A stretch of 64,000 bases of DNA, from assembly GCF_000021485.1 (NCBI RefSeq), contig NC_011761.1:2834501-2898500 (forward strand), written 5' to 3'. Shown one piece after another: positions 30,538 to 48,273 of the stretch (within the stretch, counting starts at the first letter, position 1; each line of letters begins with the position of its first letter). The position numbers and the translations under genes were made by a program. Below the pieces are notes generated by a model that searched no databases, was not told the origin of the DNA, and saw only the letters and a list, made by a program, of their open reading frames with translations. This stretch comes from Acidithiobacillus ferrooxidans ATCC 23270. GTDB lineage: Bacteria > Pseudomonadota > Gammaproteobacteria > Acidithiobacillales > Acidithiobacillaceae.

Positions 30538-30584
30538 CCAGCGTCTGAATTTCGTCCACGAGCAGCAGTGTGGGGTTTTCTTCT
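30538..30584. repeat. Second copy of the ATPase Walker B segment
   Basis: 47 bp identical to 29925-29972 except for one lost T in a T-run. It ends exactly where the group II maturase fragment begins, so it marks a recombination junction. Confidence 0.9.
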
Positions 30585-30995
30585 CCCCACCGTGGTCGAC
30601 CGATTCATCGATTTACGGTCAGCCAGAACGGAGCCAGACTGAAGGTGGCGGACAAAGCCATCGACAAACTCAAAGACCGCATCCGAGAACTGACCCGCCA
30701 CATCCGAGGCCACCGTTTGGCCGACATCGTGGCAAAGCTGAGAATAATTCTGCTTGGTTGGAAAATATACTTCGGCGTAGCCGAAGTGCTGAGTCCCGGT
30801 CCTCTGCGCGACATCGACAAACGGCTGCGGCGCAAGTTACGCTGCACTATCTGGAAGCAATGGGGCAGGTCAGGCTACCGGCAACTACGCAAACGCGGCG
30901 TATCCGTGCGCGAAGCATGGAACACCAGTAAAACGGTCCGTGGCGTTTGTCGAAAACCCGGCGCTATCGCTACAAGAAAGAGGAACTCCAAACAT
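30585..30995 (+). pseudogene. Group II intron reverse transcriptase/maturase, C-terminal fragment
   Basis: The frame encodes FTVSQNGARLKVADKAIDKL, then RIRELTRHIRGHRLADIVAK, LLGWKIYFGVAEVLSPGPLR and KQWGRSGYRQLRKRGVSVRE, which is the maturase (X) domain of bacterial group II intron proteins. The reverse transcriptase part is missing on the left, and the sequence ends just before the Res start. It is open in the same frame as the downstream res gene. It is dead as an intron protein. Confidence 0.88.
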
Positions 30996-33722
30996 ATGGC
31001 ATTGCACCCGAATTTCCCACGCTCTCCCTACGAGGTATTGCCCCCAGACCTGCGCTGGTTCCCGGCAGCGGAAGAACTACGCAGTACAGCTTATGAAAAG
31101 CTGCTGCCTCCACTGGTCGCGAAAGTACGGGAAGAGGTAAAAGCATGGCGCGATACTGACTATGCGGGCGCCTCGTCAACGTCACGCGCACTGCTGGCTT
31201 GGTGGTTCGAGACCAGCCATATGATCGAACAAGCAGACGGCACACAAAACCAGTTCCGCTACTACTTCGCGCAGCGCGAAGCGGTCGAAACCGTCATCTG
31301 GCTCTATGAGGTGCGCGGCGCGCGCGACAAGTTCGACCTGCTGCGTTTCGACGCCTCTGGCGCCGTGTCGGCCAATATGTTCGATGAGGCGTGGCCGCGC
31401 TTCGTGGTCAAGATGGCCACTGGTGCGGGCAAGACCAAGGTGCTGTCGCTGCTGATCGCCTGGAGCTACTTTCACAAGCTCTATGAGGCGGATTCGACGT
31501 TGGCGCGCAACTTCCTGCTGATCGCGCCCAACATCATCGTGCTCGACCGCCTGCGCGCCGATTTCGACGGGCTGCGCATCTTCTTCAATGATCCTGTGCT
31601 GCCCGACAATGGCCATGCCGGCCACAACTGGCGCGACGATTTCCAGATGGCCCTGCACATCCAGGACGACGTGCGCATCGTTCGGCCGACCGGTAATCTT
31701 TTTCTGACCAACATCCACCGGGTCTATCTCGGCGAGGTGACCGAGCCCTCGCTGGAGGATGATGACCTGCGCGATTACTTCCTCGCGCCGTTCGGTGCCA
31801 AGCCCGTCGGCAAGACCACTGACAGCAACACCGACTTGGGCGAAATCGTGCGCGAGATTGATGAACTCGCCGTGTTCAACGACGAGGCGCACCACATCCA
31901 CGACAGCCGCCTGGCATGGTTCCAGTGCATCCAGGACATTCACCACAAGCTGCTACAGAAAGACCTGCACTTGGCGATCCAGGTGGACGTGACGGCCACG
32001 CCGCGCCACGACAATGGCGCGATCTTCGTGCAGACCGTGAGCGACTACCCCCTGGTCGAGGCCATCGCCCAGAACGTGGTCAAGCACCCCGTGCTGCCGG
32101 ATGCGGCCAGCCGGGCAAAGCTGGAGGAGCACAAGAGCCCGATCATCTCCGAAAAATATGCCGACTACCTCACTCTGGGCATCGAGGAATGGCGCAAGAG
32201 CTACGCCGAACACGAGAAGCTGGGCAAGAAGGCGGTGTTGTTCGTCATGGTGGACGACACCAAAAACTGCGACGAAGTGGGCAGTCACCTGGAGCGGATT
32301 TGCCCGGAGCTACAGGGAGCGGTGCTGGTAATCCACACCAAGAACAACGGCGAGATTTCCGAGGCGGCCTCCGGCAAGAGCAAGGAAGATCTGGAGTTGC
32401 TGCGCAAGCAGTCCAATGAAATCGACACCTGGAAATCGCCCTACAAGGCGATTGTCTCGGTGCTGATGCTCAAGGAAGGCTGGGACGTGCGCAACGTCAC
32501 CACCATCGTTGGCCTGCGCGCCTATGCCGCCAAGAGCAACATCCTGCCGGAACAGACCCTCGGGCGCGGCTTGCGCCGCATGTATTTCGGCAGCGACCAG
32601 CGCGAGACCGTCTCGGTGATGGGCACGCCGGCTTTCATGGATTTTGTGGAATCCATCCAGAACGAGGGCGTCACCTTTGACCGTGTGCCGATGGGCGGCG
32701 CCGGTGGACGGCAACGGCAAGATTCTCTGGTTGTCGAGGTCGAAACCGAATCGCCCGACAAGAACATCGACGAACTCGACATCACGGTGCCGCGCCTGAC
32801 CCGGCGCTACAACCGGGAATTCAAAGACCTGACCGAGCTGGAGCCGGAACACTTCGGCAACCCGAAGCTGCCGATCAAGGCCTTCACGCCGGAAGAAACC
32901 CGCGAGATTGTCTTCAAGACCATGCTCGAAGGCGAGGTCGATCACACCATGCAATTGGATGGCAGCGGGCCAGGCGATTACCGCTCCGTGGTGGCGTTTT
33001 TCGCGAGGCAACTCCTCAAGGACTTGCGCCTTGTCGGCGGTTACGACCAGCTCTATCCCAAGGTCAGATCCTTCCTTCGCGACCACCTCTTCACTCAGCC
33101 GGTCGATCTGGAAGACCCGGTGATCCTGCGCAACCTGTCCGAACCGGAAGTCGGCAAGCTGGTGTTCGATCATTTCCGCGCCGCGATCAACGCCCTGACG
33201 ATCTACGAAGGCGGCAGCTCGCGCATCGACGGTCATATCCGGCTTCGGGACACCCGGCCTTTCCGAACCGAGCCGCGCGACTTCGTGCAGGCAAAGAAGT
33301 CGGTATTCAACCGCATCGTCGGCGAAGCCAACGCGGGCGGCCTTGAGCTGGCCTTTGCCGCGTTCCTGGAGGCTGCGCCCGACGTGCGGGCCTTCGGCAA
33401 GAACTACATGGCCGTGGGCTTCAAGATCGAATACGTCAAAGCCAACGGCGAGTTGTCCACCTACACGCCGGATTTCATTGTGCGCATCAGCAACGGCGAG
33501 GTCTGGATCGTCGAGACCAAAGGCCGCGAAGAACTCGACCTGCCGCAGAAAATGGCCCGCCTGCGGCAGTGGTGCGAGGACGCCACCGAAGCGAGCAAGG
33601 ACGACGGCGGGCCGAGTTACCACTTCGTCTATGTCGATCAGGAGGGCTTCGAGCAGCACAAGCCCTCGACGTTCGCGGGCTTGGCCAGCGTATTCCGTGA
33701 ATACCAAGACGAGGGCCGCTGA
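30996..33722 (+). CDS. Type III restriction enzyme, Res (helicase-endonuclease) subunit
   Basis: A 908-residue SF2 helicase with nuclease. Walker A ATGAGKT is at residues 141-147, and the DEAH-type box is AVFNDEAHHIHDSR. The helicase C part includes EGWDVRNVTTIVGLRAYAAK and LPEQTLGRGLRRMY. The PD-(D/E)xK nuclease near the end is TYTPDFIVRISNGEVWIVET plus KG. With Mod it cleaves DNA bearing two inversely oriented unmethylated sites. The ATG at 30996 has an AGAGGAA site; the frame is open upstream through a maturase fragment, which I exclude. The stop lies 2 bp from the mod start. Confidence 0.92.
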   Translation: MALHPNFPRSPYEVLPPDLRWFPAAEELRSTAYEKLLPPLVAKVREEVKAWRDTDYAGASSTSRALLAWWFETSHMIEQADGTQNQFRYYFAQREAVETVIWLYEVRGARDKFDLLRFDASGAVSANMFDEAWPRFVVKMATGAGKTKVLSLLIAWSYFHKLYEADSTLARNFLLIAPNIIVLDRLRADFDGLRIFFNDPVLPDNGHAGHNWRDDFQMALHIQDDVRIVRPTGNLFLTNIHRVYLGEVTEPSLEDDDLRDYFLAPFGAKPVGKTTDSNTDLGEIVREIDELAVFNDEAHHIHDSRLAWFQCIQDIHHKLLQKDLHLAIQVDVTATPRHDNGAIFVQTVSDYPLVEAIAQNVVKHPVLPDAASRAKLEEHKSPIISEKYADYLTLGIEEWRKSYAEHEKLGKKAVLFVMVDDTKNCDEVGSHLERICPELQGAVLVIHTKNNGEISEAASGKSKEDLELLRKQSNEIDTWKSPYKAIVSVLMLKEGWDVRNVTTIVGLRAYAAKSNILPEQTLGRGLRRMYFGSDQRETVSVMGTPAFMDFVESIQNEGVTFDRVPMGGAGGRQRQDSLVVEVETESPDKNIDELDITVPRLTRRYNREFKDLTELEPEHFGNPKLPIKAFTPEETREIVFKTMLEGEVDHTMQLDGSGPGDYRSVVAFFARQLLKDLRLVGGYDQLYPKVRSFLRDHLFTQPVDLEDPVILRNLSEPEVGKLVFDHFRAAINALTIYEGGSSRIDGHIRLRDTRPFRTEPRDFVQAKKSVFNRIVGEANAGGLELAFAAFLEAAPDVRAFGKNYMAVGFKIEYVKANGELSTYTPDFIVRISNGEVWIVETKGREELDLPQKMARLRQWCEDATEASKDDGGPSYHFVYVDQEGFEQHKPSTFAGLASVFREYQDEGR

Positions 33723-33724
33723 CC

Positions 33725-35980
33725 ATGGCAAAACAAGACAAGAAAGCCTACGACCTGAGCGAAGCCGAACAACGCGACCTGGTGACCCTGATCCAGCAAG
33801 GCAAGGCCCTGCCGGAGAAATACCGCTTCATCCTGTTCGAGGACAAGCGCGAGGTCGAGCTGGTGTGGAACGGCAAGACGCGGGACGTGTGCACCACGGT
33901 GCTGCCCTTCCAGACCCTGGAGCATGTGGACGAGCCGCGCGCCGAGACTAAAACCCAGGGAGATCTGTTCGACCCGCGCGGCCGCCAGGTCAGGGGTTGG
34001 ACCAATAAGCTGATCTGGGGCGACAACAAGCTGATTCTCTCCTCGCTCAAGAGCGGCGCGCTGCGCCGCCAGATCGAGGACGCGGGCGGCTTGAAGCTGA
34101 TCTACATCGACCCACCATTCGATGTCGGCGCGGATTTCAGCATGGATGTCGAGATCGGCGGTGAGACCTTCCACAAGGAAGCGAACTTACTCGAGCAAAT
34201 CGCCTACCGCGATACTTGGGGGCGGGGGGCGGATAGTTTCATTTCAATGATCTATGAGCGCCTGATCCTCATGCGCGATCTGATGGCAGAGGACGGGAGC
34301 ATCTATGTGCATTGCGATTGGCGACTGGCAAGTCTTGTCCGTATCGCATTAGATGAAGTATTTGGGAAAGGAGGCGATAACGAAGCTCCTGGATTTCGGA
34401 ACGAGATCATTTGGTACTTCAGTCAAGGTGGAAAGGGGGTAAAGCACTGGGCGCGAAAACACAATACCATCCTTTATTATTCTAAGACTGATTCTCCTAT
34501 CTTTAACCAAGATGCGGTCAGACTTCCGTTTACTCCACATAAGCAGGATGAGAAGGGCGAGAACTATGGCGGGCGTATGGGCGTTGACGAGGACGGACGG
34601 CGTTACGTAGAAAAGTGGGGAACTGGGAAGAAGAAGCTATATCGGTACTACCTGGATGAAGGCAAATTACCCGAGGATGTTTGGACCGACATTCAGTCTA
34701 TTCAGTCTGCGGCAACTGAACGCATGGACTACCCGACTCAAAAGCCGGAAGCCCTTCTCGAGCGCATTATCAAGGCTAGTAGTAAAGAAGGAGATTTGGT
34801 TGCCGATTTTTTCGTTGGTTCCGGCACGACCGCTGCCGTCGCCGAAAAATTGGGGCGCAAATGGATTGCCACCGATCTTGGGAAATTCGGTATCCATACG
34901 ACCCGCAAACGGCTCATCGGTGTACAACGCGAGAAAAAGGCCGCCGAACAAGACTTCCGTGCTTTTGAGGTGTTGAACCTTGGCCGCTACGAGCGCCAAG
35001 CCTACTTGAATGTCGGTGGGCGGCTCTCAGGCGAACAGAAGGCCCAAGCCCTCACCCAGAAAGAAAACGAGTTCCGCGACCTGATCTTGCGCGCCTACAA
35101 GGCCACAGAATTTGGCGGCACCGAAGGCACGCAGGCGCAGGACGGCTTTTTCCACGGCGCGCGCAATGGCCGGCTGGTGGTGATCGGGCCGATCAACCTG
35201 CCCGTGGGTCGGCTGTTCGTTGAGGAAGTCATTACCGAGTGCCGCAAGCGCGGTGCTTCGCGTGTAGACGTGCTGGCCTTCGAGTTCGAGATGGGGTTGT
35301 TTCCGGCCGTGCTTGAGGAAGCGCGTGGCAAGGGCATCGACCTGGCCCCGAAATACATTCCCGCCGAGGTGTTCGACAAGCGGGCCATCGACAAGGGTCA
35401 GGTGGTGTTCCACGACATCAGCTTCGTCGAAGCCACGCCGCGCTACGACAAGAAGAACAAGTTCGCGGTCACCATTGAGCTAACGGATTTCTCGGTCTAT
35501 TACACCCAGGGCGCCGCCGAGGCCGCGATTGCCGCCATGAAGGAAGGCAAGAGCGAGGTCATGTGCGAACAGGGTCAGCTCTACAAGGTGAGCAAGAACA
35601 AAGAAGGGATCGTCACCAAGGCGCGCCTGACCAAGCACTGGACGGACTGGGTGGATTACTGGGCGGTGGATTTCGACTATATGAGCCGCAGAGAAATCAT
35701 CAAGGTGCCAGTGGGCACCGGCCTCAGTGGAGTCGCCTCACTGCTAGGCATTGAACCGCCGCAAGACGAACTGATTACGCAGGAATTCGAGGAGCGCTGG
35801 ACGGGCGGCTACATCTTCGAGAATGAATGGCAGAGCTTCCGCACCCGCCAGAATCGCGACCTGGAGCTGGCAACGGCCGTGCATACTTATGACCGGCCGG
35901 GGCGCTACACCGTAGCTGTCAAGGTAATCGATATTTTCGGCAATGACACGATGACGCTCGTGCCAGTGAACATTGGTTAA
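33725..35980 (+). CDS. Type III DNA adenine methyltransferase, Mod subunit
   Basis: A 751-residue beta-class N6-adenine methyltransferase. The catalytic DPPF is at 129-132 (KLIYIDPPFDVGADF), and the AdoMet motif FVGSGTTAAVAEKLGRKW follows at about 360, the expected order. The region in between should be the target recognition domain. That central part of the gene (about 34180-34900) is clearly more AT-rich than both flanks, suggesting that the recognition domain was exchanged. Mod also guides Res. The gene is the second of four closely spaced genes. Confidence 0.93.
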   Translation: MAKQDKKAYDLSEAEQRDLVTLIQQGKALPEKYRFILFEDKREVELVWNGKTRDVCTTVLPFQTLEHVDEPRAETKTQGDLFDPRGRQVRGWTNKLIWGDNKLILSSLKSGALRRQIEDAGGLKLIYIDPPFDVGADFSMDVEIGGETFHKEANLLEQIAYRDTWGRGADSFISMIYERLILMRDLMAEDGSIYVHCDWRLASLVRIALDEVFGKGGDNEAPGFRNEIIWYFSQGGKGVKHWARKHNTILYYSKTDSPIFNQDAVRLPFTPHKQDEKGENYGGRMGVDEDGRRYVEKWGTGKKKLYRYYLDEGKLPEDVWTDIQSIQSAATERMDYPTQKPEALLERIIKASSKEGDLVADFFVGSGTTAAVAEKLGRKWIATDLGKFGIHTTRKRLIGVQREKKAAEQDFRAFEVLNLGRYERQAYLNVGGRLSGEQKAQALTQKENEFRDLILRAYKATEFGGTEGTQAQDGFFHGARNGRLVVIGPINLPVGRLFVEEVITECRKRGASRVDVLAFEFEMGLFPAVLEEARGKGIDLAPKYIPAEVFDKRAIDKGQVVFHDISFVEATPRYDKKNKFAVTIELTDFSVYYTQGAAEAAIAAMKEGKSEVMCEQGQLYKVSKNKEGIVTKARLTKHWTDWVDYWAVDFDYMSRREIIKVPVGTGLSGVASLLGIEPPQDELITQEFEERWTGGYIFENEWQSFRTRQNRDLELATAVHTYDRPGRYTVAVKVIDIFGNDTMTLVPVNIG

Positions 35981-36032
35981 TCGCAGTTCCCCGTGCGAAA
36001 ACATATAAACAGTGAGTAGGAGATGGGTGATA

Positions 36033-38717
36033 ATGCAAAGCAAGAAAACACGGTCCCAAGCGATCAACGAGGCGCTGAAACAGCCGAACGGCGCGCGGTT
36101 CTACCGGTGCGCTCTGCAGGTTAATCCGTTCGCCTATCACGACCGCCATGCCAAACAGACCGCCTTCCAAAACGAGGCTGATTATAACTCCGCGATTATT
36201 GAGGCTTGCCATGCCAACAACATCGAGGCCATTGCCGTCACTGATCACTATCGGATCAGCGATTCGCGGGGTTTAATCAACGCGGCTCGTGCGGCGGGAA
36301 TTTTCGCCTTCGGTGGGTTCGAGGCGGCATCAGATGACGGCGTACATTTCTTGTGTCTCTACGATCCCGACAAGGACGACAGCCTGGAACGCTTAATCGG
36401 CCAGATGGGCGTGGGGGATCACAAGGCAATCTCCCCGAATGGGGATAAGAACTGCCTCAAGTTACTGGAATGCGTCCGCAAACAAGGTGGCATCTCAATC
36501 GCTGCCCATGTCGCCGCTGACAACGGCTTGTTGGCGACGCTTGAGGGCCAGCCGCGCATGAATGCGTGGCAGTCCCGTGATCTGTACGCCTGCGCACTGC
36601 CAGGGCCAATTGGCGACGCCCCGCAAAATGTACGCGCCATCCTGGAGAACAAAGACGCGGCGCACAAACGCGAGCGCCGTGTCGCCGTCATCAACGCATC
36701 TGATGTGAACAGCCCCGAGGATTTGGCTGAGCCACGGTCAAGCTGCTTCATAAAAATGTCGGCACTGTCGGTAGAAGGCCTTCGCCAAGCGTTCCTCGAT
36801 CCAGAGTCTCGGATACGCTTGCATAGCGATCCAAGCCCGGAACCGCATGCCGAGTTCATTGCCATGGCTTGGGAAGGCGGCTTCCTTGACGGAACGCGAC
36901 TGCATTTCAACGGCAACCTAAATGTGCTGGTGGGTGGCCGGGGGACCGGGAAATCGACCATTATCGAGAGCCTTCGCTATGCGCTGGCGATCGACCCCAT
37001 TGGAGAAGAGGCAAACAAGGCCCATCAGGGCGTTCTGAAATACGTCCTGAAAAGTGGCACCAAGATTTCGCTGCTCGTGCGGTCGCATCATCCCGCCAAG
37101 CATGATTACACCATCGAGCGGACGATACCCAACCCGCCTGTGGTCAAGGACGAGCTAGGTAACGTTCTAAACCTGTCGCCCCTTGACGTAGCACCGAGCG
37201 TCGAGATATTCGGCCAACACGAAATATCGGAACTGACCAAGAGTCGCGGGAAGCTGACGCTGCTACTGGAGCGGTTTGTCGAACGTGATCCGAACGCGGG
37301 TGCCCAGAAGGCGAAATTGCGCCTGGATCTGGAGCGCTCGCGTGGCCGGATCACTGATGTGCAACGAGAAATCAAGCTGATCGAGGAGCGCCTTAGCCTT
37401 TTGCCGAGTCTGGAAGAGACGCAAAAGCGATTTCAGGATGCCGGTCTGGAGGAACGTCTGAAGGAGAAGAGTCTCCTGGTGCGGGAAGAGCGCATTTTGG
37501 CGACCATCAAGGAAAGGCTGGCTCCGGTTTCGACGTTACGCCAGGAGCTGGCCGGGCTCCTGCCGATCGATACTGCTTTCCTATCCGCCAAGGCGTTGGA
37601 GGGTTTGCCGAACAGCGCGCTGCTCATCGAGGGCGCAGCCATTCTTGATCGGATGACGGCGCAACTTGAAGCGGTCGCTGGGCAGATCGAACAGGAGCTT
37701 TCCGTGGCCGATACTAGCCTGTCGGCATTGCGCGGTCATTGGGACCAACGCAGGCAAGCGGTAGAAACCACCTACCAAGCTCTCTTGCGTGAACTTCAGA
37801 AATCCAAGATTGATGGCGAGGAGTTCATCCGCCTGCGTCGGCAGATCGAGGAATTGAGGCCGCTCCGGGAGAAAAAGGAAGCCCTTACCCGTGACTTGGC
37901 CGCATACCAACAGAATCGGCGCAACTTGCTTGATGAGTGGTTCAATCTTCAATCCGCCGAGTACCGTGCCTTGGAGAAGGCAGCCAAGCGTGTTTCTAGG
38001 AAACTGGGCGGTCGAGTGCGTGCCATGGTCATGATGGGGGGCAATCGTGAGCCGCTCGAAAAGCTTCTGCGTGATGAAATTGGCGGCAACCTTGCCGCGC
38101 TGCTGGAGCGTTTGAAAAGCCGCGATACTCTGTCGCTGATGGACTTCGCCCAATGCTGCCGCGAGGGCAAAGATTCGCTTATCAGCAACTACAGCCTGCC
38201 GTCGGCAGCGGCCGAACGCCTAGCCCAGGCGGATCCCGACATTTTCATGAGGATGGAAGAGCTGGAATTACCAGCAACAACTCAGATCGAACTAAACACC
38301 TCATCCGAGGGCGAGCCGGAAACCTGGCAAACGATTGAAGCACTTTCGACCGGCCAAAAGGCAACAGCCGTTCTTTTGCTACTGCTGCTTGAATCGGAAG
38401 CTCCTCTCGTCGTTGATCAGCCTGAGGATGACCTCGACAATCGCTTCATTACCGAAGGTGTTGTACCGACGATGAGGAATGAGAAACGCAAACGGCAGTT
38501 CGTCTTCTCGACCCACAATGCTAATATCCCCGTGCTTGGTGACGCCGAGTTGATTATCGGCCTCTCAACAGGTATTCAGAACGAAGTCGTTCAAGGGCGT
38601 GTCAACGAACGGCACATGGGCTCGATTGATATGCAGCCCGTGCGCGAGATGGTCGAGGAAATCCTTGAAGGCGGAAAAACCGCTTTTGAGATGCGCCGCC
38701 AAAAATATGGATTTTAG
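36033..38717 (+). CDS. PHP-like domain fused to an SMC-like ATPase
   Basis: An 894-residue protein. The N-terminal 230 residues resemble the PHP metal-dependent phosphoesterase fold: YNSAIIEACHANNIEAIAVT followed by DH, GGFEAASDDGVHFLCLYD and GGISIAAHV. The expected first HxH is replaced by QVN (CALQVNPF), so metal binding is altered. The rest is an SMC/RecN-like ATPase: Walker A GGRGTGKST, a long coiled coil (REIKLIEERLSLLPSLEETQ and more), then signature ALSTGQKATAVLLLLLLESE, Walker B PLVVDQPEDDLDN and the switch FSTHNANI. Such proteins are frequent in defence islands. I chose the ATG at 36033, with GGAG upstream. Confidence 0.8.
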   Translation: MQSKKTRSQAINEALKQPNGARFYRCALQVNPFAYHDRHAKQTAFQNEADYNSAIIEACHANNIEAIAVTDHYRISDSRGLINAARAAGIFAFGGFEAASDDGVHFLCLYDPDKDDSLERLIGQMGVGDHKAISPNGDKNCLKLLECVRKQGGISIAAHVAADNGLLATLEGQPRMNAWQSRDLYACALPGPIGDAPQNVRAILENKDAAHKRERRVAVINASDVNSPEDLAEPRSSCFIKMSALSVEGLRQAFLDPESRIRLHSDPSPEPHAEFIAMAWEGGFLDGTRLHFNGNLNVLVGGRGTGKSTIIESLRYALAIDPIGEEANKAHQGVLKYVLKSGTKISLLVRSHHPAKHDYTIERTIPNPPVVKDELGNVLNLSPLDVAPSVEIFGQHEISELTKSRGKLTLLLERFVERDPNAGAQKAKLRLDLERSRGRITDVQREIKLIEERLSLLPSLEETQKRFQDAGLEERLKEKSLLVREERILATIKERLAPVSTLRQELAGLLPIDTAFLSAKALEGLPNSALLIEGAAILDRMTAQLEAVAGQIEQELSVADTSLSALRGHWDQRRQAVETTYQALLRELQKSKIDGEEFIRLRRQIEELRPLREKKEALTRDLAAYQQNRRNLLDEWFNLQSAEYRALEKAAKRVSRKLGGRVRAMVMMGGNREPLEKLLRDEIGGNLAALLERLKSRDTLSLMDFAQCCREGKDSLISNYSLPSAAAERLAQADPDIFMRMEELELPATTQIELNTSSEGEPETWQTIEALSTGQKATAVLLLLLLESEAPLVVDQPEDDLDNRFITEGVVPTMRNEKRKRQFVFSTHNANIPVLGDAELIIGLSTGIQNEVVQGRVNERHMGSIDMQPVREMVEEILEGGKTAFEMRRQKYGF

Positions 38718-38719
38718 AC

Positions 38720-39931
38720 ATGACCATGACCTACACCGAACTGCTAGAAATCATCCGCAACGGCGAGAATTCAGGCGTTGAATTCAAGCGTGACGATATT
38801 CAGAACCATGACTTGGCAAAGGAACTCGTCGCCTTGACCAATTTCGAAGGCGGGATCGTCCTGTTGGGGGTTGAGGATGACGGTAGCATCAGCGGTATCA
38901 CACGGCAGAAACTTGAAGAGTGGGTAATGACTGCCTGCCGGGACAAAATACGACCTGGCCTTATTCCGTTCTACGAGCAGATTAGGGACGTTGAGCCAGG
39001 AAAAGATGTCGCTATCGTGCGCGTTTCACGTGGTCTCGATGTTCATACCCTATGGCACAACAATAAGAACAGCTATTTCATCAGGGTGGGGACTCAGAGT
39101 CGCGAGCCGACCCCGGAAGAGCTCGGTCGGCTGTTCCAGCAGCGTGGTAGCTTCCGAGCTGAGCTGCGACCAGTATCCGGCGCAACACTCGCCGACCTGG
39201 ACATGCGGCGCCTATCGAATTACTTCGCTCAGGTGAGGGAGCAGGTCGTGCCGGAAAACAATGATGAAGCCGCGTGGAGGGCCCTTCTGTTCAACACCGA
39301 GATCATGGTCGAGGACGGCATCACTGTTTCAGGCATTCTTCTGTTCGGTAGGACACCCAATCGATTCCTGCCTCAAGCTGGTATCGACGCCGTTGCCTTT
39401 CCGGGCGTAGATAAGGACTATGCCGCCCGTGAAAGGGCCGCCTTGCGGGGGCCGATGACTCCGCTGCTAAACGACGCAGGCGATATCGTCGAAGCTGGCT
39501 TGGTCGAGCAAGCCATCGCCTTCGTCCAGCGCAACACTGCTATCGGAGGGCAACTTGAAGAAGGCGGTGCGCGCCGCGAGAACCTCCCAGCTTATCCCCG
39601 CGAGGCCATCCGCGAAGCGATCGTCAACGCCCTGATTCATCGAGACTATCTGCTCTCAAGCACTGACATTGAGCTTTCGATCTATGAGGACCGACTAGAA
39701 ATTACTTCCCCAGGCAGATTGCCAAATGGTATTACGCCGGCGCGGATGCTGACCGGCTGCCGTGCGACACGAAACCAGCTCATCAAGGATGTTATGCGCG
39801 ACTACCGCTACCTCGAACATTCCGGCATGGGCGTCCCACGCAAGATCGTTAAGTGCATGAGGGAACACAATGGCACCGAGCCTCAGCTAATTGAGGATGG
39901 AGAGCTTTTCACGGTCCGCCTTCTTCGGTAA
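38720..39931 (+). CDS. AlbA_2/Schlafen-type ATP-binding protein
   Basis: A 403-residue protein of the COG2865-like family. The AlbA_2 (Schlafen-related) domain spans residues 1-130: ENSGVEFKRDD, LVALTNFEGGIVLLGVEDDG and SYFIRVGTQSREPTPEEL. The C-terminal half holds the HATPase-like ATP-binding core: YPREAIREAIVNALIHRDYL, ELSIYEDRLEITSPGRLPNG and the end GMGVPRKIVKCM. The start is 2 bp after the stop of the PHP-like/SMC gene, so it is the fourth gene of the restriction operon. Related proteins are annotated as regulators or nucleases; the exact job here is unknown. Confidence 0.85.
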   Translation: MTMTYTELLEIIRNGENSGVEFKRDDIQNHDLAKELVALTNFEGGIVLLGVEDDGSISGITRQKLEEWVMTACRDKIRPGLIPFYEQIRDVEPGKDVAIVRVSRGLDVHTLWHNNKNSYFIRVGTQSREPTPEELGRLFQQRGSFRAELRPVSGATLADLDMRRLSNYFAQVREQVVPENNDEAAWRALLFNTEIMVEDGITVSGILLFGRTPNRFLPQAGIDAVAFPGVDKDYAARERAALRGPMTPLLNDAGDIVEAGLVEQAIAFVQRNTAIGGQLEEGGARRENLPAYPREAIREAIVNALIHRDYLLSSTDIELSIYEDRLEITSPGRLPNGITPARMLTGCRATRNQLIKDVMRDYRYLEHSGMGVPRKIVKCMREHNGTEPQLIEDGELFTVRLLR

Positions 39932-39970: not shown

Positions 39971-41632
39971 CTATGTGGAAGCGGATGGGCCGGGAGCCTC
40001 AAAGAGCTTTTTCCTCAGTTTTGCTGCCCAAACGCCATTCTGTTGTTGCTCATTACCTCCCGGATCAGGTCTCATCACCTTCCGCAGCCGCTCATATTGA
40101 GCAAGCTGGTCGCCTTCATTCTCTGTAACGTCCCAACGTCCTCCCCGACAATCCAGCCGGTGAAGAATCAACAGGATATGGTTTTCGATATCTCGAAGCC
40201 CGATACTACCCTTGAATCGCAGCAACAGCGTAGACAAGGCCATTATGTTACTATGCTCCACATCCAGCAACACCACCGGGAACGTCTTTTTCTGGAAAAA
40301 TACGGCAACCAGGCATAATCTTTGGCGCTTTCCAACCATGGAAAAGGCCTGCCCGGTTTCAAGCCGACACAGCGCCGTCAAAACACGGACATCTATTAAC
40401 CCGTGCGCCATGGTCCGGATCACCTGCATCAATCGCCTTAGATCGTCCGTACCTTCACCTTTCTCGACCGCAAGCACCTGAAACTCCATGGGCAGGAGAT
40501 CGTCGTGCAGAGACTCAGGGGAAACGCTCACTTTAGGCGGTGGGGTTTTTCCACTTCCCCGATATTTTCGGGTCTTTCCCTCATTTTCACTGGTACCCGC
40601 AGCACCCTTGTTTCTACGCCTGATAACACGTACCCGATCTTTTTTATCCACCCGACGCACTTCGATTTCCCGGTCAAAAATGCTGGTTCTGGTCAATATC
40701 GGCAGGGCTGGCTGATGAACATCCGTCCTACTACCCGAACCTACCGTGTCTATGACAGGAACGTCACCGGATGACGGCCCACCGTCTGGTCCACGCCTTT
40801 TGGGCTGACTTTTTGGCATCCGCACTGTAATCGTTTTCCCCAACGACGGATGAGAAAAATACAAAATGTCACAGGGTACCCTTTTCCCCGTGAACTCGGA
40901 GATTTCTAAGATAAGCCACTGATTTCCTTTCCGCACTCCACGAAACTTAATTCCACAGTCATGCAGATCAGGAGGATCAAAGGTCATATACTTTTGTTTG
41001 AATGTCCGTTCGTAGACACTGTCCCAGGCGCGTTGCCCATCAGGATCCACCGCTAGCCAAGAAAATTCCAAGATAAATGGCCTCTTGAGTGATCTCACTG
41101 GCATTTGCTGGGTATAATCGAGCTGCAGACGAGGATGAAACCCAGGTTCGACCGGCCTGAAGAGTGTCATAATGCCCCCAGGCTGCATAATATGATTGGC
41201 AAGCGTTTTATTATGCAGGAACAGGCTACGGATGAGCTCCATGGTCGGGACCAAATACTCCACCTGATCCACTCGATAACGCAAGAGTCGCTGCACCCCC
41301 TGTGATTTGCCTTCAAACGAATATAATTCCGGCGGAATGTCGGACGAGTTGATTTCCTCTCCTTCCGCCAGATTGGGAATAATCACTTCCGAATATTCGC
41401 CGTAGGTTATTGGGAGCAATCTACCGTCGGAGAAGCTATAGCCGAGTGCCAGCACCGGGAACAGCCCAATAGGTACGCGCCACATGGCAAATTCGCCTGA
41501 CGACACGCCGCGGGTGACTATACGGACCTGCCACCCTTTTTTATCGTCTTGTTCGACTCCGGCCAGCCAGTGTAGCGTCAAATCTTCAGGCACTTTGCGC
41601 AATACGTCTATTCTGATCAATTTATACCTCAA
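39971..41632 (-). CDS. tnsE: Tn7-like transposition protein TnsE
   Basis: A 553-residue protein, close to Tn7 TnsE (538). The position after tnsD with an 11-bp overlap and the C-terminal region RLCLVAVFFQKKTFPVVLLD, then VEHSNIMALSTLLLRF support the call. TnsE directs insertion into replicating and conjugal DNA by reading discontinuous replication. Its presence means the element could use mobile plasmids as well as attTn7. The middle is Pro/Gly/Lys-rich and low in complexity (about residues 270-370). Confidence 0.85.
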   Translation of the reverse strand: MRYKLIRIDVLRKVPEDLTLHWLAGVEQDDKKGWQVRIVTRGVSSGEFAMWRVPIGLFPVLALGYSFSDGRLLPITYGEYSEVIIPNLAEGEEINSSDIPPELYSFEGKSQGVQRLLRYRVDQVEYLVPTMELIRSLFLHNKTLANHIMQPGGIMTLFRPVEPGFHPRLQLDYTQQMPVRSLKRPFILEFSWLAVDPDGQRAWDSVYERTFKQKYMTFDPPDLHDCGIKFRGVRKGNQWLILEISEFTGKRVPCDILYFSHPSLGKTITVRMPKSQPKRRGPDGGPSSGDVPVIDTVGSGSRTDVHQPALPILTRTSIFDREIEVRRVDKKDRVRVIRRRNKGAAGTSENEGKTRKYRGSGKTPPPKVSVSPESLHDDLLPMEFQVLAVEKGEGTDDLRRLMQVIRTMAHGLIDVRVLTALCRLETGQAFSMVGKRQRLCLVAVFFQKKTFPVVLLDVEHSNIMALSTLLLRFKGSIGLRDIENHILLILHRLDCRGGRWDVTENEGDQLAQYERLRKVMRPDPGGNEQQQNGVWAAKLRKKLFEAPGPSAST

Positions 41633-43451
41633 AGGATCCAGCCATTATTTCCAATGCGGCCAAGGCGGTTTCTACGCTCGGTGAAGCTATCGAAGGCAGC
41701 CCTGCTAAGCGGCGTACCCGCCACGATCGCAAAGGCAACGCCTGGCGATCCAATTCCGAGACAGCCCAAGCAATACGGCGCAGGCGAAACGCATCAATAG
41801 TCTCCGTGACCTCGCCAAGTACACCGATACTTTTAGGCAGTTTTGCCTGTTGTTCTGACATCCGGAGTGGCCGCCCCAACTTGCGCTCCAAAGCCGCCTG
41901 GGTAACGCGTTGTGGCGGAACCTCCCGAGTGATTTCCCGCGCGGCCTTACGCAGTTGGATCGCCATGCTACGATCCAATGTCTCCCAGTCCACACGCTGA
42001 TCAGACCATTTCTTGTGCAGTGCCGTTGGTGAATGTTGCTCCAGCCACTCCCTGTCATGGCGGTACAACCATGAGTGTTCTTTGGGTAGCAGGAGTGCCA
42101 GTCGCCGACGTGATAAATCAGCGTAATTCTGCTGCATGTCCAACCACCGTATTCTTATGGCATCCCGGTCTGGCACCAATGTTCGGGAATGTCGTGCGGC
42201 TAAGGGCTTCCAGGGCACATTCAACCCGCGTCGGGAGGCGTGCAATCTCACCGTCCCTGGATCAATGGCAAGATATTTGGCTACCGCCCTGAGTCCCAGG
42301 CCTTCCGCCACTTTCTGCCGGATTTGACCATCCAGTAGGGGACCAAAGTCCAAAATGCGCGGCGAACTCCTTGATCCCACCTCTCGACTGTACACAAATC
42401 CGCAGGCGCAGGAAAATCGACCAATCACCCGATTCTGTTCATGGCGAACAGCGATCTCGTAGATCACGTCTTGCCCATAATGGTCTGCCAGACGATTAAA
42501 GCAGGGCCACGGTCCCTTGCCGAAGGGGGTTTCCGTCCGCCGTTGCGGCGACCGTTTGTCCAGAAAAATCTGGAATAGAACATGCCGCAACGGATGAAAT
42601 GCCTTTCTGTGTTTCCGTACCATGGCCGTAGGCCAATCGTCGCCGAGACCACCGGGGATAAGGTCGATTACTGGTTCAAACAGGCTTGAAATTGCTTCCC
42701 TGAGAAGGTTCTGAGCGACATTCTCCTTGCCTTTGCCGAAGCCGCGATCAATCACTGCGCTCCGATAATATGCACTCCAATCGCGAAAGCTGGGGCGCGC
42801 TGGCGGATGATCGAGCAACGCCGCGCTCCGCTTGGCAATCTCTTGCAACAGCGTCACTTGGCGCGGGCTACTCGCCCAAGAAGGGAGTGCCGCCACAGGC
42901 GAACAGTTCTTTTGATCCGCGGCGATGAATTCGTGCTGGTTACTGCCACCTTGAGAGACCGCACTGTCCGCCAGGGCCGCGCCATGATCTGGACAAACCA
43001 GAACGCCGGGGAGTTGATGGCTGCGCCTCCAATATCCTTCTCCATAGCGGCTCAACATCTCGCCAAAGCAGATGGGACAATACCGTAAGTATGCCGGAGC
43101 CGAAATCGCGCTCGCCGCAATACCCAGACGCACATGCACGGCATCCGCCGGGCCGTCCGCTAATGACGCCAGTACGGATTGTCCCACTGACTTCGGCTCG
43201 AATGCCGTGTAATAACGGTAGAGGGTAAAATCCCTGGTCAGTCTTTCCGGACTGAGTCCGCGATCGGCCGGTATTCTTTGGCTCAACGCCGCCACATGGC
43301 TTTGCAAGCCCACCGTCGCCCGCACCCCGGTTTCACCAAAGAGATCATACAGGGTGTGTTTCGGGCTTCTGGAACAAACGTGGCGATGATAACGCGCAAG
43401 CGCGCTGTATAACAGTTCGTCGGGATAAATTTCCGGGAAATAGGCCAACAC
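41622..43451 (-). CDS. tnsD: Tn7-like target selector TnsD (TniQ family)
   Basis: A 609-residue TniQ-family protein, longer than Tn7 TnsD (508). The start is FPEIYPDELLYSALARYHRH, the typical TniQ opening. The zinc-binding motif is in YLRYCPICFGEMLSRYGEGY and VLVCPDHGAAL. A second cysteine cluster, FSCACGFVYSR, and a helix-turn-helix-like SLGLRAVAKYLAIDPGTVRL-type segment follow. It binds the 3' end of glmS and recruits TnsABC, so it accounts for the insertion at 48249. Start 12 bp after the tnsC stop. Confidence 0.92.
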   Translation of the reverse strand: MLAYFPEIYPDELLYSALARYHRHVCSRSPKHTLYDLFGETGVRATVGLQSHVAALSQRIPADRGLSPERLTRDFTLYRYYTAFEPKSVGQSVLASLADGPADAVHVRLGIAASAISAPAYLRYCPICFGEMLSRYGEGYWRRSHQLPGVLVCPDHGAALADSAVSQGGSNQHEFIAADQKNCSPVAALPSWASSPRQVTLLQEIAKRSAALLDHPPARPSFRDWSAYYRSAVIDRGFGKGKENVAQNLLREAISSLFEPVIDLIPGGLGDDWPTAMVRKHRKAFHPLRHVLFQIFLDKRSPQRRTETPFGKGPWPCFNRLADHYGQDVIYEIAVRHEQNRVIGRFSCACGFVYSREVGSRSSPRILDFGPLLDGQIRQKVAEGLGLRAVAKYLAIDPGTVRLHASRRGLNVPWKPLAARHSRTLVPDRDAIRIRWLDMQQNYADLSRRRLALLLPKEHSWLYRHDREWLEQHSPTALHKKWSDQRVDWETLDRSMAIQLRKAAREITREVPPQRVTQAALERKLGRPLRMSEQQAKLPKSIGVLGEVTETIDAFRLRRIAWAVSELDRQALPLRSWRVRRLAGLPSIASPSVETALAALEIMAGSFEV

Positions 43452-43462
43452 GGGTGGCTTTT

Positions 43463-45118
43463 TCAGCTCGCGAGATCGGCCATCGGCGGTTTAACGGCGC
43501 CCGCCGCAAGCAATGCATCGTAAGCGGATACGCCCTCTTTTTTGGCCGAGATGATCGTCCGGAGATCCTGCGCATCCACGGGAAGTGGTGTTTTCGCGGT
43601 TTTAGTAGCGCTTGTAGTCGACTTGCGCGGTTTCTTAGAGGGATTGGCGGGTGCGCGATCACGTAATTTAGCCGTAATAATGCCCACGAGATCTAGCGCG
43701 GACAGGCCCGGATGCTCTGCTTCGGCTTCCGCCACCAGGACTTCCGCGATGTCCCCAGCCAACCCGAGCTGCGCCAAGATAGGCAGAAGGATGCCGCGCA
43801 CATCCAGATTCGTGCTTGCCGCCTTTTCGGTCGTGACCGAAGCCACCGGAGAGCGGGTGGCGAGGACAGGTTGCCCTGGCATGCAACTCAGCGCGTCGCT
43901 GAACACCTGCAGAACCTGGTCCTGCATGGGGCGGATATCATCATATTGTGCGATCGCCTCGCGATCCCCACGTTTCAACGCATTGATCATGGGCGCGATA
44001 AGCCGCATGTGCTCACTAGCCACCTGCCGCAGCAGACCAGCGTCGATACGCTCAGGCCTGCCCCGTAGAACTCCGAGTTGGATGGCACGCAACTGCGCCA
44101 TCATGAAGAGGTTGACCAGCACGTCCACAATCCCCTGGCTTTCCTCATAGAGCGCTTGGCGGATCTCGCCGGTCAGGGGCGAGACCTCCCGCGTCCACTG
44201 ATAGCTCCACATGCGATCGACAAAATGGTTCCAGGTCGCGCCTACTTCCATGCGCTCCCAGACCAGACTTCCTAAACCACTGGCGCGGCGCGCCTGGCGG
44301 AAGTCCCCCTGCAGCAGCGGCAGTGCGCCCAGCGTGCCGATGACAATCACCGGGATGCCGATGGTGTTCACCAATGTTACGAGAAAATTCAACAAGGCGT
44401 CGGCTCCAGTGCCGGGGGCTTCCTTGATATGCTGAATCTCGTCGACGATCAGTACGCCGAGGGCATGCAGGTTGGCCATTTGCGCCATCTGGACCATCAT
44501 CTCGTCCAGGGAACTCCGGCTGGCTCCGTACCGGGCGCGGTAGCGGGTGCCCAATAGATTGTCCATCTCCTGGAAAAAGCTGATGCAGAGTTGTTTGGGG
44601 GATCCTTTGTAGGGGCTATCCAGCTTCAGCCAGACCACTTGGTCAAGACTGAAGGGCTCGGCATGGTGGACGACTTGCGGATACAGCTCCAGGACCCTGG
44701 CCATGCCGTAGCTCTTGCCGATGCCGGAGCAACCAACCAGAGCAAAACTGCTCGCCGTCGAACGAACCGGGCGCCGGACAGCGGCGAGATCCTTCCCGAC
44801 GACCCGCTCGTAGCCGTCCTGGAGACGGCGGATATAATCGGTAGTGTTGGGATTGCGGCTCAGATACCCCTGGCGGAGGAGCATGCCGAACTTCGCTTCC
44901 AGTTGTAGATGGTTCTCCAGCGGCTCGAAATAATTCTTCAGGCGCAGGACGCAATGCGCCCGGAGGTGGGCGGCGTAGCCACGCTCTTTTTCGTTAAAAA
45001 TCGGAGGCGCGGCCATGGTCCGCAAGGCTTCGCGCGCCGACAAGAGGGGCGGCAACTGCGCGATGAAGGGGTTGTCGCGATATTCCGGCAAGTCGGTCAC
45101 GTCATCCCGCGTCGTCAT
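43463..45118 (-). CDS. tnsC: Tn7-like regulator ATPase TnsC
   Basis: A 551-residue AAA+ ATPase, similar to Tn7 TnsC (555). Walker A is VGCSGIGKSYGMARV and Walker B GVLIVDEIQHIKEAP; the following VIVIGTLGALPLLQGDFRQA then RRASG fits the sensor/arginine-finger region. It links target selectors with the TnsAB transposase and mediates target immunity. It overlaps the end of tnsB by 17 bp. The last 100 residues are rich in Lys, Ala and Pro and may be a flexible tail. Confidence 0.93.
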   Translation of the reverse strand: MTTRDDVTDLPEYRDNPFIAQLPPLLSAREALRTMAAPPIFNEKERGYAAHLRAHCVLRLKNYFEPLENHLQLEAKFGMLLRQGYLSRNPNTTDYIRRLQDGYERVVGKDLAAVRRPVRSTASSFALVGCSGIGKSYGMARVLELYPQVVHHAEPFSLDQVVWLKLDSPYKGSPKQLCISFFQEMDNLLGTRYRARYGASRSSLDEMMVQMAQMANLHALGVLIVDEIQHIKEAPGTGADALLNFLVTLVNTIGIPVIVIGTLGALPLLQGDFRQARRASGLGSLVWERMEVGATWNHFVDRMWSYQWTREVSPLTGEIRQALYEESQGIVDVLVNLFMMAQLRAIQLGVLRGRPERIDAGLLRQVASEHMRLIAPMINALKRGDREAIAQYDDIRPMQDQVLQVFSDALSCMPGQPVLATRSPVASVTTEKAASTNLDVRGILLPILAQLGLAGDIAEVLVAEAEAEHPGLSALDLVGIITAKLRDRAPANPSKKPRKSTTSATKTAKTPLPVDAQDLRTIISAKKEGVSAYDALLAAGAVKPPMADLAS

Positions 45119-47267: not shown

Positions 47268-48100
47268 CCGCTGGCCCTCCTGGATTCACCTTCGGCCACT
47301 CGAAACTGACGCAAAAGCTTGGAGTCGTCCGTAGGCCCGTCCATAGGACAGACGATTGCCTTCGTGGCCAGCAAGTGGCGAATTAGGAGGAGACAGTCAC
47401 CAGCAGACATAGAAAACTGCAGGTCCATGTCGGCGCAGAATTGCCGGAGGGTAGGCCCCGGGTGCGACGGAAGTTCTCGTAACACCAGCCTTGCTTTCTC
47501 ATCGTAGTAGCCGTCGTAGGGCTGGCTCATCTGGTCAATTACGGCATAACTGTGAACCCAGGCGATATTGCGAACCATCGCTTTCGGGATGTCCCGCTCG
47601 GTGACGACGCCCCAATCCACGCCTTGCTGCGCCCAATAACGGCGTTCAATCTCCAGTTTTTCGACCACCCGCGGCTTTTCAAGTTCTTCAGCCGGTTTTA
47701 CCGCCCGCGCCAGTTGCACCATACGTCCATCATGGATCGTGTCCACAAGAAAGTCCGTGGTCATGACTAGAGGGGTGCCGCTGCCAACATCGCGGGGATG
47801 GATGACCCCAAGATCATCCGCAATACGGCGAGTGATGTCGCGATTCAGCGGAAACTGTTCGCGGATGTCCGTGACGGCGTCTGCCCAATCGAACAGGTAG
47901 AAGATGTCGCGCTCAATATCCGAGAGCAGGTGATGCACTCGCCCGGTCTTGATGCCCTTGAGTCGGTGGGACCGCCCTTGGGAGGGCACGTCTTGGATGG
48001 TAAGCCAGGGGTGGTAGTCTGCGCCACGCCCCTGACCACGTCCCTCCTTTTGGAAGCGTGCGATCCGGTCTTCGTCGACACCGTAGCGTTGGCGTGCCAA
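47264..48100 (-). CDS. tnsA: Tn7-like endonuclease TnsA
   Basis: A 278-residue protein, close to Tn7 TnsA (273). It makes the 5'-end cuts that give cut-and-paste transposition. Visible catalytic elements: Glu in LSDIERDIFYLFDWADAV, Asp in LVMTTDFLVDTIHDG and Lys in RVVEKLEIERRYW. I chose the TTG at 48100, preceded by AGGAGAGG, rather than the upstream open frame to 48157, which has no ribosome site and runs up to the right-end repeats. The C-terminal winged-helix part follows. Confidence 0.92.
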   Translation of the reverse strand: MARQRYGVDEDRIARFQKEGRGQGRGADYHPWLTIQDVPSQGRSHRLKGIKTGRVHHLLSDIERDIFYLFDWADAVTDIREQFPLNRDITRRIADDLGVIHPRDVGSGTPLVMTTDFLVDTIHDGRMVQLARAVKPAEELEKPRVVEKLEIERRYWAQQGVDWGVVTERDIPKAMVRNIAWVHSYAVIDQMSQPYDGYYDEKARLVLRELPSHPGPTLRQFCADMDLQFSMSAGDCLLLIRHLLATKAIVCPMDGPTDDSKLLRQFRVAEGESRRASG

Positions 48101-48160
48101 GGCATCCTCTCCTAGCTGATCATTAGGCAAGCATACTCCACTACCTCCGGAGCGCAAGGC

Positions 48161-48248
48161 CAGGATGATACTCTATTGTTGAGGATGATACTTTATTGTT
48201 CGGGATGAAACTCTATTGTCCAGAATGATACTCTATTGTCCGTTAACA
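48161..48248. mobile_element. Tn7-like right end, four 20-bp tandem TnsB-type sites
   Basis: Four direct repeats of exactly 20 bp (CAGGATGATACTCTATTGTT and variants) start at 48161, 48181, 48201 and 48221, and the last runs into CGTTAACA. Four overlapping sites near the terminus are the hallmark of Tn7 right ends. The promoter of tnsA should overlap them, allowing repression by TnsB. Confidence 0.92.
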
Positions 48249-48253
48249 ACACC
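48249..48253. repeat. Target site duplication ACACC, right copy
   Basis: Matches 9248-9252. It lies 20 bp before the glmS stop codon, the attTn7 insertion position. Confidence 0.93.
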
Positions 48254-48273
48254 CGGCACACCGAACCGCCCCA

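What the first reader, a model, noticed from the sequence alone, without database searches (positions are those of the whole stretch)
30996..39931. Four-gene operon: type III Res, Mod, PHP-like/SMC-like ATPase and AlbA/Schlafen-type ATP-binding protein
Gaps are 2, 52 and 2 bp, all on one strand, in a defence-rich Tn7 cargo. A type III system needs only Mod and Res. The two added genes, a PHP-like/SMC-like ATPase and an AlbA_2/HATPase protein, suggest an extended system: for instance a second effector layer, triggered when phage avoid Res, or a control of nuclease activity. I do not know a named system with exactly this set.
Basis: partly seen in the sequence, partly recalled or inferred. Interest (0 to 1): 0.75.

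Follow-up and report, generated by a model that had tools for sequence, protein, structure and literature searches.

The report
Restriction operon with portable growth-arrest module
This is a bacterial restriction-modification operon with two extra genes, trlF and trlG, a pair known from a growth-arrest locus and also found inside several other kinds of anti-virus systems, so it looks like a portable back-up layer rather than a special part of this one system.

Summary
The four intact genes and the 2/52/2-bp gaps are real. Genes 1-2 are a type III-like Res and Mod. Gene 3 is a TrlF-family PHP/ABC-ATPase. Gene 4 is a TrlG homologue: a Schlafen-type AlbA_2 domain plus a histidine-kinase-like ATPase. 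TrlF-TrlG is a unit of its own: in 44 TrlF-bearing genomes, 32 of 45 TrlG hits lie directly downstream of TrlF. Homologues form the Photorhabdus 'temperature restricting locus', where trlG mutations relieve a growth arrest. The pair is not specific to type III. It also sits in type I RM, BREX-1, DUF499/DUF1156 and MmeI-type loci. With this Res-Mod family the full four-gene set is rare: 1 intact case in 44 loci with enough sequence in view. Two close relatives have Res-Mod-TrlF with no TrlG beside it. Best reading: a type III system carrying a portable back-up module that stops growth when restriction fails, by PARIS-like logic but with a different effector. The trigger, RNase activity and phage protection are inferred. 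In the papers searched, Schlafen partners near BREX are reported; TrlF-TrlG as a cross-system module is not, but two likely sources were not held.

The parts
30996..33722 (+). Res: helicase-nuclease subunit, 908 aa
   Evidence: ResIII 44.9 bits; PADLOC REase_III 78.6 bits; C-terminal D826, E840, K842 invariant in 5 aligned sequences (window and 4 relatives), as in a PD-(D/E)XK site (motif name recalled)
33725..35980 (+). Mod: N6/N4 DNA methyltransferase, 751 aa
   Evidence: N6_N4_Mtase 144.7 bits; PADLOC MTase_III 396.7 bits
36033..38717 (+). TrlF homologue: degenerate PHP-type domain + ABC/SMC-like ATPase with coiled coil, 894 aa
   Evidence: NF045780 522.4 bits over cut-off 350; profile of 19 relatives matches PHP structures 2anu and 9etk and the PARIS ATPase AriA; model matches SMC/Rad50 heads, best Z about 20
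38720..39931 (+). TrlG homologue: Schlafen AlbA_2 + HATPase_c_4, 403 aa
   Evidence: Pfam; model pLDDT 86.8; closest solved folds 3lmm, 2kyy, SAMD9 tRNase domain, Schlafens
30570..30995 (+). upstream in-frame extension of the Res ORF that reads like a group II intron maturase end; DNA shared with two relatives begins at 30811
   Evidence: ORF list, blastn; maturase identity judged by eye
39971..48157 (-). Tn7-like transposition genes next to glmS (48274-50109): unassigned 553-aa protein, TniQ, then TnsC, TnsB-like and TnsA
   Evidence: TniQ 82.5 bits, TnsB-like 31.9 bits; glmS; TnsC and TnsA named by position only

Best explanation
The operon is a type III-like restriction-modification pair (Res-Mod) followed by a transferable TrlF-TrlG module. 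Shown: TrlF and TrlG are a conserved pair; the pair occurs inside several unrelated methylation-based defence loci; the TrlG model has a Schlafen/SAMD9-type fold joined to a GHKL-type ATPase; mutations in its Photorhabdus homologue relieve a growth arrest (published). Inferred: TrlF is an ABC-ATPase sensor that watches the restriction system or its inhibitors and holds TrlG inactive; when restriction is blocked or fails, TrlG is freed, cuts tRNA or other RNA and stops growth, so the phage is not released. This is the logic of PARIS with a different effector. TrlF probably also has a role without TrlG.
For: Pairing: 32 of 45 TrlG hits (E 1e-40 or better) in 44 TrlF-bearing genomes lie directly downstream of TrlF, against about 0.002 expected by chance. 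Inside core operons: HsdM-HsdS-TrlF-TrlG-HsdR; HsdR-TrlF-TrlG-HsdS-AAA-HsdM; PglX-TrlF-TrlG-PglZ-BrxL; BrxC..PglX-TrlF-TrlG-PglZ-BrxL (L056). Partner switching on the TrlF tree: BREX with TrlG 5 rows/5 changes, DUF499/DUF1156-or-DUF6079 with TrlG 3/3, type I with TrlG 2/2. Fold: the TrlG N-terminal part matches the SAMD9 tRNase domain (Z 10.9) and Schlafens 5, 11, 12, 13, 14 (best chains Z 8.8-10.1); E16 in 36/36 and E21 in 34/36 keep the five-residue spacing of SLFN13 E205/E210. Phenotype: trlG mutations relieve growth arrest (PMC7554251, passages). ATPase kinship: the TrlF profile hits AriA; AriA holds the tRNase AriB and frees it on Ocr (PMC11455837, passages).
Against: No phage, binding or RNase data for any TrlF-TrlG came up in my searches. 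In relatives G677 and G678, Res-Mod-TrlF has no TrlG beside it, so TrlF is not merely TrlG's keeper. TrlF also occurs alone: 16 of 47 full-length sampled loci. The third Schlafen acid (D53) holds in only 26 of 36, and two rows near the Photorhabdus type have Q for E21. In Photorhabdus no trlF mutants were seen, and the arrest occurs with trlF present. Beside a methylation-based system lie 7 of 10 sampled TrlF-TrlG loci in the class sample but only 3 of 21 in the phylum sample; 21 of 31 showed none, though not all neighbours were scanned, and I made no formal count of how often unrelated genes lie by such systems. The window clade has lost the PHP HxH motif.
Confidence: 0.5

Rival explanations
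1. TrlF-TrlG is an independent stand-alone defence (or stress-arrest) module that merely lies next to Res-Mod in a defence-rich cargo; the two share a transcript but no mechanism.
For: 21 of 31 sampled pairs show no methylation-based system nearby; the Photorhabdus locus stands alone with a small regulator; 52-bp gap before TrlF with a weak promoter-like match, no better than chance; 1 of 44 co-occurrence in this Res-Mod family.
Against: Placement between core genes of type I and BREX operons with tight or overlapping junctions and separate joining to such systems on the tree.
Confidence: 0.3
2. TrlG is a DNA-binding regulator of the operon and TrlF a repair or DNA-handling ATPase; the pair tunes restriction rather than killing.
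For: Related proteins are annotated 'transcriptional regulator' or 'RNA-binding domain-containing protein'; the TrlF model resembles SMC/Rad50 heads; structure hits for TrlG include a SAMD9 domain solved with DNA (7ksp).
Against: Acidic Schlafen residues E16 and E21 are kept in 36 and 34 of 36; mutations in the Photorhabdus homologue relieve growth arrest; among the best N-terminal domain matches are RNase domains.
Confidence: 0.12
3. TrlF is the working anti-phage protein (like Ppl, a single-protein defence) and TrlG is an optional extra.
For: TrlF without TrlG in 16 of 47 full-length sampled loci and in two close type III relatives; it scores 166.5 bits against the Ppl model.
Against: Ppl cut-off (1000) is not reached; the PHP HxH motif is lost in the window clade; 31 of 47 full-length TrlF loci have TrlG directly downstream.
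Confidence: 0.08

Closest known systems
Temperature Restricting Locus (trlR-trlF-trlG) of Photorhabdus laumondii, PMC7554251
   Same: TrlF then TrlG, same two Pfam domains in TrlG; the pYR3 plasmid copy named in that paper was fetched (L344): its TrlG is 32% identical to the window's over 373 aligned residues
   Different: A small trlR lies upstream and the three genes follow each other with no restriction genes between; in that paper 'phage' occurs 0 times
PARIS (AriA-AriB)
   Same: ABC ATPase plus nuclease pair, also found inside BREX loci (PMC11341690, PMC12839542); TrlF profile hits AriA
   Different: No TOPRIM nuclease; TrlF adds a PHP-type domain and TrlG is Schlafen-type
Schlafen RNase + minimal histidine kinase 'backup effectors' of BREX and BREX-related systems, PMC12839542
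   Same: Effector architecture like that of TrlG, linked to core loci in at least 1017 taxa
   Different: The word PHP occurs 0 times in that paper; TrlF as partner and links to type III are not described in the section part and passages I read
Ppl (PHP + ATPase single-protein defence; description recalled)
   Same: 166.5 bits to NCBIfam's anti-phage Ppl model
   Different: Far below its cut-off of 1000; a different subfamily
Type III restriction-modification (Mod, Res)
   Same: Genes 1 and 2
   Different: Res is only distantly related to the curated models (273 of 800 bits to restr_BPTD_3080); gene order Res then Mod

Membership tests
Type III restriction-modification | Mod: N6/N4 DNA methyltransferase of the type III class | tested here: met
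   N6_N4_Mtase 144.7 bits, MTase_III 396.7 bits
Type III restriction-modification | Res: helicase motor plus nuclease, adjacent to Mod | tested here: met
   ResIII 44.9 bits; 2 bp before Mod; invariant D826/E840/K842 in 5 sequences; nuclease inferred from motif, TnsA-like Pfam hit is below its cut-off
Type III restriction-modification | ATP-dependent cleavage with asymmetric site recognition | not testable with these tools
   needs enzyme
TrlF family (NF045780) | score over the curated cut-off | tested here: met
   522.4 against 350
Temperature Restricting Locus | TrlF directly followed by TrlG with AlbA_2 + HATPase_c_4 | tested here: met
Temperature Restricting Locus | small trlR regulator gene upstream of trlF | tested here: not met
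   Mod ends 52 bp upstream of TrlF; so not filed as a TRL locus, only as carrying trlF-trlG homologues
Temperature Restricting Locus | growth arrest | not testable with these tools
   needs a strain
PARIS | ABC ATPase related to AriA | tested here: met
   profile hit to 8v46, E 1.9e-12; general ABC kinship could explain it
PARIS | TOPRIM nuclease AriB | tested here: not met
   gene 4 is SLFN_AlbA_2 + HATPase_c_4
Ppl | score over the curated cut-off | tested here: not met
   166.5 against 1000
Schlafen-type RNase | AlbA_2 / Schlafen fold | tested here: met
   Pfam 62.1 bits; Z 8.8-10.1 to the best Schlafen chains and 10.9 to SAMD9
Schlafen-type RNase | three acidic catalytic residues (E205, E210, D248 in SLFN13) | tested here: inconclusive
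   E16 36/36, E21 34/36 at the same spacing; D53 26/36
Schlafen-type RNase | tRNA/rRNA cleavage | not testable with these tools
   needs enzyme

The most novel reading that the evidence does not exclude
TrlF-TrlG is a general guard module that has joined at least four or five kinds of methylation-based defence (type I, type III, MmeI-type, BREX-1, DUF499/DUF1156), senses their failure or inhibition, and answers with Schlafen-type RNA cleavage and growth arrest; the published temperature restriction of Photorhabdus would then be a spurious firing of an anti-phage module.
Probability: 0.35. Interest if true: 0.78.

Novelty: new variant of a known kind. Interest (0 to 1): 0.6.

Why it matters
It ties an unexplained growth-arrest locus to anti-phage defence and suggests one shared sensor-effector pair that several restriction systems borrow as a second line. 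If so, one pair could be tested against phages that disarm restriction. TrlF-TrlG would also be a missing entry in defence catalogues: for these two genes PADLOC v2 returned weaker matches to Ppl, mad3, AriA, pAgo and other models, and none under a TrlF or TrlG name. It corrects the idea that these genes are a special part of type III systems.

Tried and rejected
Rejected: 'a four-gene type III system as a fixed unit'. Only L071 has it intact among 44 Res-Mod loci with at least 2.5 kb after Mod; L067 has TrlF residues 1-81 and then a DDE transposase. Rejected: gene 3 is Ppl. Rejected: gene 4 is RecG; that name comes from the HATPase_c_4 Pfam label.

Weak or uninformative: the promoter and terminator scan found no more than shuffles (4 found, 3.4 expected; 10 found, 10.0 expected). 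PglZ Pfam PF08665 found 8 places in 44 genomes and lay near a TrlF only in G348, missing BREX loci that PADLOC and phmmer recognise. N6_Mtase PF02384 lay near a full-length TrlF only in G042, G387 and, about 11 kb away, G000, and near a PHP-less TrlF in G288. I made no formal control count for the link to methylation-based systems. Foldseek and VIA-align list mainly SMC/Rad50-type folds for TrlF, so its N-terminal part was not tested by fold; PHP kinship rests on sequence profiles. The TrlF tree is a quick LG+G4 tree with long-branch warnings; its system labels were set by me, and over all 11 label groups the labels are more clustered than shuffles (24 changes, shuffled mean 34.1, 0 of 200 as low), mainly through the two 'other' groups. 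Neighbours of the sampled TrlF loci were scanned selectively, so 'none seen' is not 'none'.

Literature: answered searches (PMC open papers, no preprints). 'TrlF' as a whole word is in 38 papers; of the 20 listed, only PMC7554251 concerns this gene. Seen: PMC7554251 abstract, outline and passages; PMC12839542 abstract, outline, passages and part 1 of section 35; PMC5862951, PMC11341690 and PMC11455837 passages only. The 2020 ABC-ATPase survey (PMC7544218), which may treat PHP-ABC systems, was not held; the bacterial Schlafen preprint cited in PMC12839542 was not read (no preprints are held).
Full report
What is there. The four ORFs are intact, on one strand, with gaps of 2, 52 and 2 bp. Genes 1 and 2 are a type III-like Res and Mod: ResIII 44.9 bits; N6_N4_Mtase 144.7 and MTase_III 396.7 bits. 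Res is a distant member: it scores 273 bits against the NCBIfam model restr_BPTD_3080, whose cut-off is 800. Gene 3 is over the cut-off of NCBIfam's TrlF family (522.4 against 350). Gene 4 has SLFN_AlbA_2 and HATPase_c_4.

Gene 3 in detail. A profile of 19 sequences (window and 18 relatives) matches SMC/Rad50 ATPases, the PARIS ATPase AriA (8v46, E 1.9e-12) and, at its N-terminus, PHP-type structures (2anu, E 5.8e-11; 9etk, E 8.9e-8) (that 2anu is a PHP protein is recalled). The model (mean pLDDT 78.7) matches SMC heads with best Z about 20 over residues 272-880. In 12 aligned relatives the usual PHP HxH motif is replaced by CALQVN, while D71, H72, E97, H105, H159 and D224 are invariant. A script put 20 of 64 full-length TrlFs in the CALQVN class, 34 in an HxH class and 10 in neither; by eye several of those 10 also show an HxH. 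So the window's PHP domain is probably not an ordinary phosphoesterase (inference).

Gene 4 in detail. The model has mean pLDDT 86.8. It matches 3lmm over its whole length (Z 22.2 but rmsd 13.8, so domain by domain). Its N-terminal part matches 2kyy (Z 11.1), the SAMD9 tRNase domain (Z 10.9) and Schlafens 5, 11, 12, 13 and 14 (best chains Z 8.8-10.1, other chains down to 7.5). The C-terminal half matches histidine-kinase-type ATPase domains with Z 7-8, a level the tool warns about. SLFN13's catalytic residues are E205, E210 and D248 (PMC5862951, passages). TrlG has E16 in 36 of 36 and E21 in 34 of 36 rows, five residues apart as in SLFN13. The first aligned residues are 1 in the model and 189 in SLFN13, which would put E16 beside E205 if no gap lies between. 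D53 is kept in 26 of 36. E299, N303, G332 and N352, in the GHKL-type part, are each kept in 35 of 36, the last row being a gap.

TrlF-TrlG is a unit. In 44 TrlF-bearing genomes, 45 TrlG hits (E 1e-40 or better) were found and 32 lie directly downstream of a TrlF on the same strand; 32 of the 50 TrlF places used have one; chance expectation about 0.002 (PHP-less and some fragment TrlF rows left out). By neighbour search, 10 of 16 full-length TrlF loci in the class sample and 21 of 31 in the phylum sample have TrlG next to them, and 1 of 9 shorter (under 780 aa) ones in the two samples. The first plasmid set had 2 of 15 full-length, but it was chosen from records ranked by similarity to the window's TrlF. 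A search with the TrlG of L208 found 54 plasmid records, of which 36 show a TrlF label under or overlapping the match.

The pair is known from another setting. In Photorhabdus the operon trlR-trlF-trlG was named the Temperature Restricting Locus. TrlG there has the same two Pfam domains, and trlG mutants or a deletion of the operon escape a temperature-triggered growth arrest; no trlF mutants were seen (PMC7554251, abstract and passages). The word phage does not occur in that paper. The paper names plasmid pYR3 of Yersinia ruckeri as carrying the locus; I fetched it, and its TrlF and TrlG genes overlap. Its TrlG is 32% identical to the window's and 59.5% to that of L208. Of 11 published substitution positions, 8 fit it with shifts of 0 to -2 and 3 do not; of the 8, 4 fall on residues identical in the window protein, in both domains.

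The pair sits in several defence systems. Annotated plasmids: HsdM-HsdS-TrlF-TrlG-HsdR; HsdR-TrlF-TrlG-HsdS-AAA-HsdM; PglX-TrlF-TrlG-PglZ-BrxL. Of 20 plasmid regions looked at, the others had TrlF alone or the pair alone, or TrlF beside single such genes. From sampled genomes: BREX in L056 and L219 and, by BrxL and PglX matches, L052 and L065; DUF499 with DUF1156 in L054 and L060; MmeI in L208, N6_N4_Mtase with ResIII in L062, DUF6079 with a methylase in L196; type I in L058. TrlF without TrlG is beside type I genes in L202 and in the window genome's own second copy (L030), BrxL in L153 and a large methylase in L150. Of 47 full-length TrlF loci in the two samples, 31 have TrlG, and 10 of those 31 lie by a methylation-based system: 7 of 10 in the class sample, 3 of 21 in the phylum sample. 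Of the 16 without TrlG, 2 do. Neighbours were scanned selectively, so these are lower bounds, and no formal control was counted.

The partner changes. On a quick 64-row TrlF tree the BREX label with TrlG (5 rows) needs 5 changes, the DUF499/DUF1156-or-DUF6079 label 3 for 3, type I with TrlG 2 for 2, type III with TrlG 2 for 3; the 19 labelled rows need 12 changes, and presence of TrlG changes 11 times. Over all label groups together the tree is more clustered than shuffles, mainly through the unlabelled rows. The window and L071 are sisters of L060, a DUF499/DUF1156 locus. Long-branch warnings apply.

How often with this type III family. Of 91 loci with a Res relative (80 and 11, not checked for shared genomes), 64 have Mod downstream, 5 upstream and 22 none in view; 44 of the 64 show at least 2.5 kb after Mod. 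TrlF follows in 1 of 44 (L071), and a remnant cut by a transposase lies in L067, one of the other 20. In the window's order, 3 of 31 genomes have a close TrlF, counting the window's own. In both others Res and Mod precede it, but DNA similarity to the window ends at 38716, one base short of the end of TrlF; no TrlG was found in the 20 kb, and an integrase on the opposite strand follows, near rsmI and lppC. Their genomes were not searched for TrlG elsewhere. So Res-Mod-TrlF can travel without TrlG and in a different island. In 38 of the 80 loci the script found Mod 0.25-6 kb after Res with a gene between; one of these (L088) is an artefact, as the gene between is itself a methylase. In 19 the slot proteins form one BLAST cluster, of which 16 match AlbA_2 and 16 match HATPase_c_4. 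Representatives of the rest are Fic, OLD-like AAA_21, Bro-N, DUF3800 and DUF1828 proteins. A TrlG-like protein is therefore the commonest single add-on in these loci, and in none of them was TrlF found.

Most likely working. I infer a back-up layer: TrlF senses blocked or failing restriction and frees TrlG, which cuts RNA and stops growth. The nearest worked-out precedent is PARIS, where the ATPase AriA holds the tRNase AriB and frees it on binding Ocr (PMC11455837, passages); PARIS genes also sit inside a BREX island, though in that study they did not respond to Ocr (PMC11341690, passages). Schlafen RNases with a minimal histidine kinase are proposed as backup effectors of BREX (PMC12839542). 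What speaks against a simple keeper-and-toxin scheme is that TrlF is found without TrlG in close relatives.

Novelty. The searches listed under Tried and rejected found no paper that describes TrlF-TrlG as a module shared by restriction systems, but two likely sources were not held. I file this as a new variant of a known kind.

Noticed in passing
30570-30995: The Res ORF is open far upstream into a stretch that reads like the end of a group II intron maturase; DNA shared with relatives L348/L349 begins at 30811, so an intron probably ended just upstream of the operon.
   Followed up: partly
39971-50109: Tn7-like transposition genes (TniQ recognised, a 553-aa protein with no Pfam, PADLOC or NCBIfam match) directly beside glmS, the classical Tn7 site (recalled).
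   Followed up: partly
L030 (G000:C1:763446-766334): The same genome has a second, distant TrlF (no TrlG) directly followed by a type I restriction subunit, with a type I-like methylase about 11 kb upstream.
   Followed up: partly
L077-L143, between Res and Mod: An accessory slot between Res and Mod in about 37 of 80 loci holds TrlG-like proteins most often; representatives of others are Fic, OLD-like ATPase, Bro-N and DUF3800 proteins.
   Followed up: partly
L348 and L349: Close relatives carry Res-Mod-TrlF at the end of an integrase island near rsmI/lppC with no TrlG beside it.
   Followed up: yes
L057 11985-16674: Another TrlF-TrlG pair lies directly beside Tn7-like transposition genes (TniQ, TniB-like, TnsA/transposase fusion).
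   Followed up: no
L341: On an IncC plasmid the type I operon HsdR-TrlF-TrlG-HsdS-AAA-HsdM follows a TnsD-like gene and a small helix-turn-helix gene that may be trlR-like.
   Followed up: no
L223-L228: A shorter TrlF branch without the PHP part (about 630-680 aa): in 5 of these 6 loci it is followed at 2 bp by a 377-378 aa protein that did not match TrlG. Relatives of similar length are frequent among the viral-contig hits.
   Followed up: no
L255 8977-12737: A viral contig carries an overlapping TrlF-TrlG pair.
   Followed up: no
26919-27836: An Mrr-type restriction endonuclease gene lies upstream in the same region.
   Followed up: no
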